NCBI RefSeq assembly: GCF_032163395.1
Contig: NZ_CP119968.1
Location: forward strand, 2,568,001-2,632,000
Length of the DNA: 64,000 bases
Source: Gloeocapsopsis dulcis
Lineage (GTDB): Bacteria > Cyanobacteriota > Cyanobacteriia > Cyanobacteriales > Chroococcidiopsidaceae
Direction of reading: 5' to 3'
The position numbers and the translations under genes are program-made. Below the pieces are notes generated by a model. That model saw only the letters and a list, made by a program, of their open reading frames with translations, was not told the DNA's origin and did not search any database. This document shows, piece after piece, positions 6,499 through 10,337 of this stretch. Numbering within the stretch: the stretch's first letter is position 1; every line of letters starts with the position of its first letter.

Positions 6499-6569
6499 AG
6501 TGGTTAGTAACTAGTAACTTAATCATAGTCTAAGTTATTTAGCTACATATTAGACCATGACTCGTTCAC

Positions 6570-7190
6570 CTAGAGAATGTACAATAGCCCAAACAGAATA
6601 ATCCACACAACATCAACAAAGTGCCAGTAGATTTCTGCAGCTTCTACGCCAAAGTGTTTTTCATTTGAATAGTGACCAGAAACACGCGATCGCCAGAGAA
6701 CAGCTAGAATTGCAACCAGTCCAATAAAAACGTGCAATCCGTGGAAGCCAGTCAGAACATAAAATGCACTAGCAAATAAATTGGTGGTTAGACTAAATTC
6801 TAAGTTACTGTACTCATAGAGCTGTCCAGCCAAGAAAATTGCACCCATTGCTGCTGTAATTGCTAACCAAGTACGCATGCCAGACACATCATTTTTTTTG
6901 ATTGCTGTATCTGCGTTATGAATGACAAAACTACTGGAAATCAGAATGATCGTATTAACTCCAGGTAACAGAAGTTCTAATTCTGGTGTTCCTTCTGGAG
7001 GCCACGATGGTAGCACAGATCGAAAAGCCAAGTACGCACCAAACATTCCGAAGAAAATCATTCCTTCAGCTACTAGAAACATAATTAATCCAGTAATGCG
7101 ATGGTCTGGATGTTCCTCGTGATGTGCTGCAGCTTCAGTGTGGTGATAGTTAAGCGCTGTCTTTGCTGGGTCAATCGTTTGACTTTGCAT
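6570..7190 (-). CDS. ctaE: Cytochrome c oxidase subunit III
   Basis: A 206-residue membrane protein of the haem-copper oxidase in the respiratory chain. It has about five transmembrane helices, as in short bacterial subunits III. Recognisable parts are the VAEGMIFFGMFGAYLAFRS helix, the FYVLTGFHGLHVFIGL helix and the C-terminal AAEIYWHFVDVVWIILFGLLY. It should be the last gene of ctaC-ctaD-ctaE, but a TnpB element now separates it from ctaD by about 1.4 kb. Whether it is still co-transcribed is therefore open. The coding sequence itself is intact. Confidence 0.95.
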   Translation of the reverse strand: MQSQTIDPAKTALNYHHTEAAAHHEEHPDHRITGLIMFLVAEGMIFFGMFGAYLAFRSVLPSWPPEGTPELELLLPGVNTIILISSSFVIHNADTAIKKNDVSGMRTWLAITAAMGAIFLAGQLYEYSNLEFSLTTNLFASAFYVLTGFHGLHVFIGLVAILAVLWRSRVSGHYSNEKHFGVEAAEIYWHFVDVVWIILFGLLYIL

Positions 7191-7218
7191 GATTTAATTA
7201 AATAATGAATGTAGGAAT

Positions 7219-8540
7219 AGTGAAGTACCACAAGTTCCGCTAAGCTTCACTGGTGGCTTCCTGCCCTGAACCAGTATTCCGGTTCATCCCTAGTCTTACA
7301 ACTAGCTGGTCAGGCGTAGATTTCCCTTCTTCCAAGGGTATTTTTGATTCACAGAACAGCATGAGGTTGAGTGTAGCATTGATATCTCTGTCCCAAAAAT
7401 GCTGGCATTCAGGACACTCCCATTCCCGAGTAGCAAGTGTTAAATCTTCTTTGATGTAGCCACAATTAGAACATCTCTTTGAACTGGGGAAAAATCTATC
7501 TACATAGTATATTTCACATCCGTAGATATTTCCTTTGTACTCCAACATGGTCAGGAAGTTTCCCCACGCTATATCACTAATCTGTTTAGCTAACTTCCGG
7601 TTTTTTACCATTCCCTTGATATTTAGGCTTTCTGCTGATATTCTTTGGTTTTCAGAAGTCAGCTTCAGACTGATTTTGTGTTGATAATCTTGCCGTTGGT
7701 TAGCAACTTTTTCGTGAATATTGGCTACTCTTAATCTTGACTTATTCCTATTACTTGAACTTTTTTGTTTCCTGCTTAACCTCCTTTGTCTGATCTGAAG
7801 TCTGCGTAAAGACTTCTGAAAATATCTCGGATTCTCAAATTTCTCCCCTTTCGATGTGATCGCAAATTCCTTTAATCCCAAATCTAAACCAATCTTGTCA
7901 CCGTTTAAAGGTGCATGGGGTATGTCTTGCTCGGTAACAATTGCAGCGTAATATTTCCCAGATGGAGTTTTAGATATGCTGACATTTTTTGGCGTTCCCA
8001 ATACTTCTCGATGAATCACCATTTTGATAGGTGTCATTTTCGGCAATCTGAGAAACCCCTTCTCATCTATTGAGAAATGCTGTGGCACTCTAAATGATTG
8101 TCGATTACTTTTCTTTTTGAAGTTTGGAAATCCGCCTAACTTCTTAAAAAATCTGGTAACCGCCGACTCTAAATCTTTCAGTGTTTGCTGTAATGCTTGG
8201 GAATTAACTTCTTTTAGCCATTCAAATTCTGACTTTAACTCAATTAATAGTTTTGCCCATTCTTTGTAACGCAGAGATTTTTTAGACTTAGCGTAGACAT
8301 CTGTTGTCAGTCTTAAAAAATGGTTATACACAAATCTGGAACAACCAAAACATTTTGCTAAAAATACTGATTGCTCTTTGTTGGGATAGAGTCGGAATTT
8401 GTAAGCTTTGTTTCCCATAGCGCTTACTATACCATACTTATCCAATTCAATGCAATTAGTTAAACACCCTATGTCCTGCCCTGGCTTTCATCCCCAAATG
8501 GAACATTAAGCGGAATCTGGGGTCTTCCCGCCAGGATGAT
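7219..8540 (-). mobile_element. IS200/IS605-superfamily element carrying only tnpB
   Basis: The element lies between ctaD and ctaE. At the tnpB 3' side a hairpin AGTGAAG...CTTCACT (7219-7251) resembles the subterminal palindromes of this superfamily. At the 5' side a CCCCA...TGGGG hairpin lies at 8492-8522. TTCCGCT followed by AAG or TAA occurs near both ends in opposite orientation. No tnpA is present, so movement would need a transposase in trans. The exact ends are estimates. The minus-strand sequence through the tnpB 3' end is where a guide (reRNA/omegaRNA) would be made. Confidence 0.65.
7240..8418 (-). CDS. tnpB: TnpB, RNA-guided nuclease of an IS605-type element
   Basis: About 392 residues. 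The start chosen is MGNKAYKFRLYPNKEQ, the usual TnpB beginning; an in-frame start nine codons upstream is less likely. The RuvC-like catalytic residues are visible: Asp in IGLDLGLKEFAI, Glu in ISAESLNIKGM and Asp in DRDINATLN. A zinc finger, CSNCGY...CPECQ, lies between the last two. The protein is full length without frameshifts and is probably active. TnpB proteins use an RNA copied from the element's end to cut DNA beside a short target motif, which helps retain the element. It shares the strand of the cta operon. Confidence 0.92.
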   Translation of the reverse strand: MGNKAYKFRLYPNKEQSVFLAKCFGCSRFVYNHFLRLTTDVYAKSKKSLRYKEWAKLLIELKSEFEWLKEVNSQALQQTLKDLESAVTRFFKKLGGFPNFKKKSNRQSFRVPQHFSIDEKGFLRLPKMTPIKMVIHREVLGTPKNVSISKTPSGKYYAAIVTEQDIPHAPLNGDKIGLDLGLKEFAITSKGEKFENPRYFQKSLRRLQIRQRRLSRKQKSSSNRNKSRLRVANIHEKVANQRQDYQHKISLKLTSENQRISAESLNIKGMVKNRKLAKQISDIAWGNFLTMLEYKGNIYGCEIYYVDRFFPSSKRCSNCGYIKEDLTLATREWECPECQHFWDRDINATLNLMLFCESKIPLEEGKSTPDQLVVRLGMNRNTGSGQEATSEA

Positions 8541-8542
8541 AA

Positions 8543-8577
8543 ATTGTGAGCCTTCATTAAAACTGATTGCTCACAAT
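8543..8577 (-). terminator. Hairpin after ctaD
   Basis: A perfect 9-bp stem ATTGTGAGC/GCTCACAAT with a 17-base loop lies 9 bp beyond the ctaD stop on the minus strand. There is no strong T run. It could be a weak terminator or processing site that was once between ctaD and ctaE, now next to the TnpB element. Confidence 0.45.
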
Positions 8578-8585
8578 CTATCAAG

Positions 8586-10337
8586 TTACTCGCGGTCTTC
8601 AGGGTTGGCAGCAACTTTAGGATCGGGTTCAGCACGTAATGCTGAATTAGGACCAGCTGCTAAAGCAGGTTCTCTTTCATCAGATAGTGGTACATTCTCC
8701 ACTACTTCATCGTCACCATTATTCATACCGTAGTCATAAGGTCCTGTTGCTAGCACAGGTAATTTGTCAAAATTTTCAATCGCTGGTGGTGAAGTTGTCA
8801 TCCACTCTAAGGTTAATGCTTGCCAAGGGTTGTTACCTGCTTTAGGACCGTACATCCAACTCCAAATAGCATTGATAATGAACGGAAAAGTAGAAACTGC
8901 AAGTAAATAAGAACCCATCGTGCAGATAAAGTTGAGGGTTTCAAATTTAGGGTCGTACACTGCAATCCGGCGGTTCATACCCATCATGCCCAACTTGTGC
9001 ATTGGTAAGAAGGTCATATTTAAGCCCACGATAGTGAGGGCGAAGTGAACCTTACCCCAAAACTCATTGAGCATTCGCCCAGTCATTTTGGGAAACCAGT
9101 GGTAGAAACCCGCATAGATGCCTAAAACACTACCGCCAAAGAGAACGTAATGGAGATGAGCAACAACAAAATAGGTATCGTGGACGTGAATATCAAAGGG
9201 TACAGCAGCTAACATAACGCCGCTAATTCCACCAATAACAAACGTGCCGACAAAGCCCATAGCAAATAGCATGGCACTATTGAGACGCAGCTTACCACCC
9301 CAAACCGTGGCTACCCAGCTAAAAACTTTGATCCCTGTGGGCACAGCGATGATCATTGTTGTGATCATAAAGAACATCCGCAACCAACCAGGAATACCAC
9401 TAGTGAACATATGGTGTGCCCAGACAATTAAGCCTAAAAAGCTAATTGCCAAACTTGAGTAGGCGATCGCCTGATAACCAAAGACTGGTTTACGGGCATG
9501 TACTGGCAAAACTTCTGAGATCAACCCAAAAAAGGGCAGGATCATAATGTAAACCGCAGGGTGGGAGTAAAACCAGAACATATGCTGGTAAACAATCGGA
9601 TCTCCACCACCAGTCGGGTTAAAAAATGTTGTACCGGCAATTAAGTCAAACGCCAACAGAATTAAAGCGCCTGCAAGTACAGGAGTAGAAAGCAAGGTAA
9701 TTGCTGAGGTGGCAATCATTGACCAACAAAACAACGGCATTTGATTTACCGACATTCCTGGAATCCGCATTTTCCAGATTGTCACCAGAAAATTGATTGC
9801 TCCCAGAATAGAAGAAGTACCAAGCAACAGGACGCTCATAATCCAAATTGCTTCACCCACCTGTCCTGTGACTAAGCTTAAAGGTGGGTAGGAAGTCCAA
9901 CCTGCATCGGGTGCATCTCCCACAAGCAAGCTGCTGATGAGCAATAACCCAGCAGGTGGAATCATCCAGAACGCGACTGCATTCAAGCGGGGAAATGCCA
10001 TATCTTTTGCCCCAATCATCAAGGGAATAAGATAGTTAGCAAATCCAGCCCCTGCAGGTACAATCCACAAGAAAATCATGATTGTCGCGTGGAGCGTAAA
10101 CAAGCTGTTGTAGACTTCGGGACTCACAAAATCCGTTTCTGGCGTTTTTAATTCTGTCCGTACTAAGTCAGCTAAAACACCTCCAATACAGTAAAAAATA
10201 AAAGTTGTGACGAGATATTGAATTCCAATGACTTTGTGGTCGGTATTAAAGCTGAAGTAATCGCGCCACTTTCTCTCTCCATGTTCTTCACTTTGAGCAG
10301 GAATATTAGCGCTTTCTTGTAGCTGTGCTTGTGTCAT
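8586..10337 (-). CDS. ctaD: Cytochrome c oxidase subunit I
   Basis: A 583-residue catalytic subunit with 12 transmembrane helices that holds haem a, haem a3 and CuB. Visible ligand regions are MFWFYSHPAVYIMILP (CuB His and the crosslinked Tyr), WAHHMFTSG (two CuB His) and HDTYFVVAHLHYVLFGG (haem ligands). A polar C-terminal tail of about 60 residues (from IENFDKL) extends past the last helix. It lies 66 bp downstream of ctaC in the same operon. Length and motifs are normal for the A-type cyanobacterial oxidase. Confidence 0.97.
   Translation of the reverse strand: MTQAQLQESANIPAQSEEHGERKWRDYFSFNTDHKVIGIQYLVTTFIFYCIGGVLADLVRTELKTPETDFVSPEVYNSLFTLHATIMIFLWIVPAGAGFANYLIPLMIGAKDMAFPRLNAVAFWMIPPAGLLLISSLLVGDAPDAGWTSYPPLSLVTGQVGEAIWIMSVLLLGTSSILGAINFLVTIWKMRIPGMSVNQMPLFCWSMIATSAITLLSTPVLAGALILLAFDLIAGTTFFNPTGGGDPIVYQHMFWFYSHPAVYIMILPFFGLISEVLPVHARKPVFGYQAIAYSSLAISFLGLIVWAHHMFTSGIPGWLRMFFMITTMIIAVPTGIKVFSWVATVWGGKLRLNSAMLFAMGFVGTFVIGGISGVMLAAVPFDIHVHDTYFVVAHLHYVLFGGSVLGIYAGFYHWFPKMTGRMLNEFWGKVHFALTIVGLNMTFLPMHKLGMMGMNRRIAVYDPKFETLNFICTMGSYLLAVSTFPFIINAIWSWMYGPKAGNNPWQALTLEWMTTSPPAIENFDKLPVLATGPYDYGMNNGDDEVVENVPLSDEREPALAAGPNSALRAEPDPKVAANPEDRE

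What the first reader, a model, noticed from the sequence alone, without database searches (positions are those of the whole stretch)
7219..8577. TnpB-only element splits the cytochrome oxidase operon
An apparently intact TnpB with all three RuvC residues lies between ctaD and ctaE in the operon's direction. tnpB and a guide RNA read from its 3' end could be co-transcribed with ctaD, and ctaE expression might depend on read-through. No tnpA is present.
Basis: partly seen in the sequence, partly recalled or inferred. Interest (0 to 1): 0.55.

Follow-up and report, generated by a model that had tools for sequence, protein, structure and literature searches.

The report
TnpB-only transposon in cytochrome oxidase operon
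A small mobile element that carries an RNA-guided DNA-cutting enzyme, but no transposase of its own, has jumped between two respiration genes in one lineage of a photosynthetic bacterium; this is a fairly ordinary event of a known kind, although the same genome also carries stripped copies that kept only the guide-RNA part.

Summary
An intact TnpB (392 aa, RuvC triad and zinc finger present) lies between ctaD and ctaE, on the operon's strand, in a Gloeocapsopsis-like cyanobacterium. The exact element is 7220-8538 (1319 bp), not 7219-8577: five same-family copies in this genome and empty sites in relatives fix both ends. It inserted after TTTAT, with no duplication or loss at this site, at the foot of an older ctaD-ctaE hairpin. 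The 80 best ctaE relatives all lack it, so it is lineage-specific. The 3' end encodes a 128-nt omega-RNA scaffold whose four stem-loops covary across 19 sequences. The guide lies in the ctaE leader; in three genomes searched it matches this junction and the empty site of two sisters. Best explanation: an IS1341-type (tnpB-only IS200/IS605) element, moved in trans by an unidentified transposase, whose TnpB cuts the empty site and so retains the insertion. Two 257/258-bp derivatives lost tnpB but kept the omega-RNA with new guides; one sits behind psbJ. Dependence of ctaE on read-through is plausible (one ctaE copy, no terminator found) but untested. New member of a known kind, modest interest.

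The parts
7220..8538 (-). whole element, 1319 bp (left end CATCCTGGCGGG..., right end ...GTACTTCAC)
   Evidence: alignment of 5 same-genome copies; empty sites
8539..8543 (-). TTTAT target / transposon-associated motif on the ctaD side (host sequence)
   Evidence: TTTAT abuts 4 of 5 own-genome copies; the fifth reads TGTAT, and TTTAT in its two empty sites. Empty ctaD-ctaE sites read TTTAC in the two sisters
8419..8538 (-). left end, 120 nt, with an inverted CCCCAGAT/ATTTGGGG stem
   Evidence: fold not better than shuffles, z -0.46
7240..8418 (-). tnpB, 392 aa, predicted RNA-guided nuclease
7882..7884 (-). RuvC-I Asp179 codon
   Evidence: (GLDLG), alignment
7630..7632 (-). RuvC-II Glu263 codon
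   Evidence: alignment
7384..7386 (-). RuvC-III Asp345 codon (DRDIN)
   Evidence: alignment
7220..7347 (-). omega-RNA (reRNA) scaffold, 128 nt, four stem-loops; 108 nt overlap the tnpB 3' end
   Evidence: 19 sequences: 95.8% of cells paired, 22 of 28 pairs with changes on both sides, 0 of 500 shuffles reach the covariation score; fold z -2.54. The 5' boundary is set by conservation, not by transcript data
7200..7219 (-). predicted guide, first 20 nt after the right end, inside the ctaE leader
   Evidence: position after the invariant TTCAC
8537..8583 (-). intergenic hairpin after ctaD (its last 2 bases belong to the element); the element sits at its 3' foot
   Evidence: -24.1 kcal/mol, z -7.4; a like inverted repeat is seen by eye in the empty sites
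8586..10337 (-). ctaD, cytochrome c oxidase subunit I
6570..7190 (-). ctaE, cytochrome c oxidase subunit III, only copy found in the genome
10404..11489 (-). ctaC, cytochrome c oxidase subunit II

Best explanation
A tnpB-only (IS1341-type) element of the IS200/IS605 superfamily that inserted between ctaD and ctaE after this lineage split from its sequenced sisters. Shown: exact ends, insertion 3' of TTTAT with no duplication or loss at this site, absence from the relatives examined, an intact TnpB in a family under purifying selection, and a covarying omega-RNA scaffold ending exactly at the right end. Inferred: a Y1 transposase acting in trans moved it as single-stranded DNA; TnpB processes the 3' part of its own (or a ctaD-tnpB-ctaE) transcript into omega-RNA; the guide is the ctaE leader, so the complex cuts the empty ctaD-ctaE site after excision or on other chromosome copies, and repair from a filled copy restores the insertion. 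ctaE is still transcribed by read-through from ctaD and/or tnpB.
For: Ends and family. Empty sites: ctaD-ctaE empty in 5 of 5 fetched relatives; the sites of three other copies empty in 2 of 2 sister genomes. 80 of 80 ctaE relatives lack it (the best 80 of 550 confirmed). Host ctaE dS to the sister is 0.35, against 0.043 between this tnpB and its nearest copy. dN/dS about 0.05-0.06 for this tnpB against the three more distant copies compared. Scaffold covariation. In three genomes searched, the own genome holds the guide only behind TTCAC (the right end itself) and each sister once, behind TTTAC. Published TnpB biochemistry: guide from the right end, TTGAT motif for ISDra2 (PMC8612924, passages); 5' but not 3' processing of its own mRNA by AmaTnpB (PMC10278001, Results section).
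Against: No expression or cleavage data. No transposase with matching ends was found: 0 of 33 Y1_Tnp loci examined (of 83 matches listed) carry the right-end motif. The sister ctaD-ctaE sites read TTTAC, and the empty sites of the 96% copy read TTAAT and TGAAT, so the motif is inferred mainly from filled copies. At C1:977k the filled site is 3 nt shorter than the empty ones. dN/dS to the nearest copy is higher (0.016/0.043), from few changes. The longer stretch 7190-7390 did not fold better than shuffles (z -0.03); the trimmed scaffold did (z -2.54). Rfam gave no match. In one search the reversed control pattern gave 0, 3 and 0 matches in the three genomes, so a match with mismatches alone would mean little; the two sister matches are exact and at the expected place.
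Confidence: 0.82

Rival explanations
1. A dead relic: the element inserted once, can no longer move or cut, and persists only because it does not block ctaE.
For: No tnpA in cis; several of the 44 TnpB matches in this genome are fragments or have stops.
Against: Full-length ORF with catalytic residues; low dN/dS against the more distant copies; structured scaffold kept; several copies with empty sites in sister genomes.
Confidence: 0.1
2. A domesticated TnpB that regulates the cytochrome oxidase operon through its guide, like nuclease-dead TnpB-like repressors (recalled, not looked up).
For: Position between ctaD and ctaE; guide sequence equals the ctaE leader.
Against: RuvC triad intact; the only own-genome match to motif plus guide is the element's own junction; absent from 80 of 80 relatives; guide identity follows from the insertion position alone.
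Confidence: 0.04
3. The insertion is in effect a polar mutation: ctaE is poorly expressed and the strain relies on other oxidases. (A question about the effect; it can hold together with the best explanation.)
For: ctaE is the only copy found and lies behind a 1.3-kb insert.
Against: ctaE is intact and 98% identical to the sister protein, dN/dS about 0.04; no terminator-like site on the operon strand before ctaE. None of this proves expression.
Confidence: 0.15

Closest known systems
IS1341-type elements (tnpB-only members of the IS200/IS605 superfamily)
   Same: One tnpB flanked by left and right ends, no tnpA; 10 of 18 such elements in one survey were 1252-1393 bp long (PMC9956272, passages).
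   Different: That paper calls it unclear whether such elements are autonomous or decayed, and later suggests independent evolution; here insertion after the split from sister genomes is shown by empty sites, although the transposase is unknown.
ISDra2 TnpB-reRNA (Deinococcus radiodurans)
   Same: Homologous TnpB aligned over residues 3-353, guide from the right end, 5-nt T-rich motif 5' of the target (PMC8612924, passages).
   Different: ISDra2 uses TTGAT and carries tnpA (tnpA in ISDra2 recalled); this element has TTTAT and no tnpA.
tnpB-only elements and PATEs of Haloquadratum walsbyi
   Same: Strain-specific insertions although all tnpA are pseudogenes in strain C23 and one is intact in HBSQ001; transposase-free, core-deleted derivatives of IS605-type elements; [quoted passage not shown]
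   Different: The two derivatives here keep the complete covarying omega-RNA scaffold, each with its own guide; the 2011 paper predates omega-RNA.

Membership tests
IS200/IS605 superfamily, IS1341 type | TnpB with HTH, OrfB_IS605 and zinc-ribbon domains | tested here: met
IS200/IS605 superfamily, IS1341 type | no tnpA within the element or beside close relatives | tested here: met
   no tnpA between the ends; by coordinates, none of the 16 close tnpB copies (11 genomes) has a Y1_Tnp match within 6 kb on its contig; 4 own-genome Y1 proteins find nothing in 18 family loci
IS200/IS605 superfamily, IS1341 type | insertion 3' of a short fixed motif with no target duplication | tested here: met
   no duplication at 4 of 4 sites with an empty counterpart; one filled site is 3 nt shorter
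IS200/IS605 superfamily, IS1341 type | subterminal hairpin at the right end | tested here: met
   helix 4: 94.5% of cells paired, 7 of 12 pairs with changes on both sides
IS200/IS605 superfamily, IS1341 type | subterminal hairpin at the left end | tested here: inconclusive
   inverted CCCCAGAT/ATTTGGGG folded, but z -0.46; left-end alignment poor beyond close copies
IS200/IS605 superfamily, IS1341 type | mobilisation by a Y1 transposase | tested here: inconclusive
   Y1_Tnp matches in 16 of 16 genomes searched, carriers and non-carriers alike, so presence says little; none of 33 loci examined has matching ends
RNA-guided TnpB nuclease | intact RuvC D-E-D and zinc finger | tested here: met
   alignment
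RNA-guided TnpB nuclease | structured omega-RNA scaffold ending at the element's right end | tested here: met
   (structure and conservation; expression not tested)
RNA-guided TnpB nuclease | guided cleavage of the empty site | not testable with these tools
   needs protein and RNA
Nuclease-dead TnpB-like repressor | loss of RuvC catalytic residues | tested here: not met
   D179, E263, D345 present

The most novel reading that the evidence does not exclude
The TnpB made from the ctaD-ctaE copy and its sister copies serves as a shared nuclease for guide-only satellites: two 257/258-bp derivatives that lost tnpB but kept the omega-RNA scaffold (one identical over 128 nt to that of a full copy) and took new guides from their own insertion sites, one of them behind the psbJ end of a photosystem operon. 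Each satellite would use TnpB in trans to be retained at its own site, so selection keeps the guide RNA rather than the protein.
Probability: 0.35. Interest if true: 0.55.

Novelty: new member of a known kind. Interest (0 to 1): 0.36.

Why it matters
It is a clean natural test of whether tnpB-only elements move and are kept by guided cleavage: exact ends, empty sites in two sister genomes, and a guide lying wholly in an operon's own leader. The guide-only satellites, if they share TnpB, would show that the omega-RNA and not the protein is the part a non-autonomous copy must keep.

Tried and rejected
Reading the element as 7219-8577: rejected by copy alignment and empty sites. A first alignment of the ends used loci in mixed orientation, and one script stopped with an index error; both were redone. 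Rfam gave no match at E up to 1 over 6500-9000, so the scaffold rests on covariation and conservation. A promoter in the element: the ctaD-ctaE copy gives no hit at the left end; the two derivatives give TTGACT-18-TATAGT and TTGACT-18-CATAGT just before the old tnpB start, but the promoter-like counts were 3 against 3.3 expected and 10 against 5.8, so it is only a hint. A transposase with matching ends: none among the 33 Y1_Tnp loci whose DNA I had; the other 50 of the 83 matches were not examined for ends. Viral contigs gave 45 loci; the best segment is 55% identical and partial, the others 30-48%; not followed. The ctaD comparison was out of register and is dropped. For the fourth copy (C1:4829549) no empty site was resolved: the sisters match only its left flank. 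In one search matches in further family members were not fetched. Before alignment A1 one of two identical right ends (L153) was dropped, 20 to 19. In one search three of the 80 loci (L075, L080, L084) had an inferred ctaE start that is not a start codon, so their gap lengths are approximate.

Literature: nine searches. In their listings I saw no paper on guide-only TnpB derivatives; I did not open most of them, the library lacks most subscription journals, and a paper I tried by DOI is not held, so this is no claim of priority.

Full report
What is there. On the minus strand between ctaD (stop at 8586) and ctaE (start at 7190) lies a 392-aa ORF, 7240-8418. It matches three Pfam domains of TnpB, NCBIfam IS200_TnpB just above its cut-off (429.1 against 425), and solved TnpB structures over residues 3-353. 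RuvC residues D179, E263 and D345 and the CxxC pairs are in place. The neighbours are cytochrome c oxidase subunits I, II and III.

Exact ends. The own genome (5.6 Mb, 3 contigs) has 44 TnpB matches; two are full copies of the same family (96% and 88% identical). Searches with each end found two more places that carry both ends and no tnpB body. Aligning the five gives a left end starting CATCCTGG or CATTCCTT and a right end GTACTTCAC. Three copies are 1319 bp and two are 258 and 257 bp. In the window the element is 7220-8538. GTA(C/A)TTCAC ends 16 of 16 close tnpB copies; 3 of these 16 have internal stops.

Empty sites. The genus is probably Gloeocapsopsis: G001, of the same genus, has its ctaD-ctaE site on a contig of 145,737 bases, the length of the G. 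crepidinum LEGE 06123 contig of L046. One search kept the best 80 of 550 confirmed ctaE loci; in 80 of 80 ctaD lies directly upstream with a gap of 59-247 bp, and none has a TnpB match. In G001 and G002 the site reads ATTTAC|TATTCCTACATTCG, against ATTTAT|element|TATTCCTACATTCA here: nothing is duplicated or lost. G086, G103 and G068 are also empty. The sites of the 96% copy and of both short derivatives are empty in G001 and G002. These are less tidy: the 96% copy's empty sites read TTAAT and TGAAT before the junction, and the C1:977k filled site reads TGTAT and lacks 3 nt compared with GTTTTAT in the empty ones. The hairpin after ctaD (8537-8583, -24.1 kcal/mol, z -7.4) has look-alikes by eye in the empty sites, so it is host sequence; the element sits at its 3' foot.

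Age and constraint. This tnpB and its nearest copy differ by dS 0.043 and dN 0.016, while host ctaE differs from the sister by dS 0.35. Against the three more distant copies compared, dN is about 0.06 and dS 1.07-1.21 (near saturation). The protein is thus kept by selection in the family, and the insertion looks younger than the split from the sisters.

Guide RNA. Nineteen right ends (15 tnpB copies, the two derivatives, two solo scaffolds from other genomes) align over 131 columns. With four stem-loops written in by hand, 95.8% of cells pair; 22 of 28 pairs show changes on both sides; the covariation score is 0.574 against 0.173 in shuffles (0 of 500) and at most 0.138 when slid. The structure was drawn from these sequences, which favours the percentage paired, and the rows are related; the many double changes are still far beyond both controls. 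A longer stretch folded no better than shuffles (z -0.03); the trimmed 128 nt gave z -2.54. The scaffold overlaps the last 108 nt of tnpB. The predicted guide begins at 7219, in the ctaE leader, 29 nt before the ctaE start codon.

Self and non-self. With TTTAY plus the first 13 guide bases and up to two mismatches, the own genome has one match, the element's own junction, where the motif position reads TTCAC; G001 and G002 each have one exact match, at ctaD-ctaE behind TTTAC (the reversed control gave 0, 3 and 0 matches in G000, G001, G002). In this model TnpB must spare TTCAC and accept TTTAT; whether it accepts TTTAC is open.

How it moves. The own genome has five Y1_Tnp matches, one a fragment and one with an internal stop. 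Four of these proteins find nothing in 18 loci of this family. By coordinates, none of the 16 close tnpB copies has a Y1_Tnp match within 6 kb on its contig. None of the 33 Y1_Tnp loci at hand, from 16 genomes, carries the right-end motif, while 20 of 20 family loci do (the motif was defined on most of those 20, and 50 further Y1 matches were not examined). The mobilising transposase is unidentified. Close relatives of this TnpB (E <= 1e-150) occur in 11 of 291 genomes of the order, a patchy spread as expected of a mobile element.

The short derivatives. C1:977019-977276 and C1:1116647-1116903 share one deletion junction and are 97% identical. They keep the left end, the first nine bases of tnpB and the whole omega-RNA scaffold. 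A shared junction at two sites, both empty in the sisters, is most simply read as movement of the protein-less form itself; the same deletion arising twice is not excluded. One scaffold is identical over 128 nt to that of the 96% copy, while their left ends are 91% identical. The second derivative lies 45 bp behind psbJ, in the direction of a psbE-psbF-psbJ operon (an ORF between psbF and psbJ looks like psbL, recalled), and just before a terminator-like hairpin seen by eye that the scan did not list. Solo scaffolds without a tnpB body occur in two other genomes (L264, L265). The RNA model found seven places in the own genome: the three full copies, the two derivatives and two weak ones, of which L286 (28.5 bits) has no tnpB match nearby.

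Effect on ctaE. No terminator-like site lies on the operon strand between ctaD and ctaE; ctaE is the only copy found. Read-through is therefore possible and, if it occurs, 5' processing by TnpB (PMC10278001, Results section: AmaTnpB processes the 5' but not the 3' side) would leave the omega-RNA on the 5' side of the ctaE message. This is inference.

Comparison. tnpB-only IS1341-type elements are known, and a 2023 survey calls it unclear whether they are autonomous or decayed (PMC9956272, passages). In Haloquadratum such elements show strain-specific insertions although nearly all tnpA are broken, and core-deleted PATEs are described (PMC3119063, passages). Gene-drive-like spread of IS200/IS605 elements in multicopy plasmids has been reported (PMC11870625, abstract); cyanobacteria are often polyploid (recalled), so the same logic may apply. 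The element is a new member of a known kind.

Noticed in passing
G000:C1:1116647-1116903 (in L042): 257-bp tnpB-less derivative with full omega-RNA scaffold, 45 bp downstream of psbJ and co-directional with the psbE-psbF-psbJ genes.
   Followed up: partly
G000:C1:977019-977276 (in L041): 258-bp sister derivative with the same deletion junction, downstream of a phospholipase/carboxylesterase-like gene and upstream of a DUF2555 gene.
   Followed up: partly
L264 (G229:C38) and L265 (G027:C2): Solo omega-RNA scaffolds with no tnpB body in other genomes of the order; in L264 the similarity starts at about the same place as the scaffold in the derivatives.
   Followed up: partly
G000, G001, G002: 44 TnpB matches in the own genome, none at E <= 0.001 in same-genus G001, and 13 in G002.
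   Followed up: no
L146 (G169:C3:4353498-4354622): A related element whose right end stops 3 nt before the start codon of a downstream ORF, so its guide would be mostly coding sequence.
   Followed up: no
L273, L274, L279 (G068, G103, G002): A 3.1-kb stretch with a decayed tnpB is 98-99.97% identical across three genomes of two genera, perhaps a shared plasmid or recent transfer.
   Followed up: no
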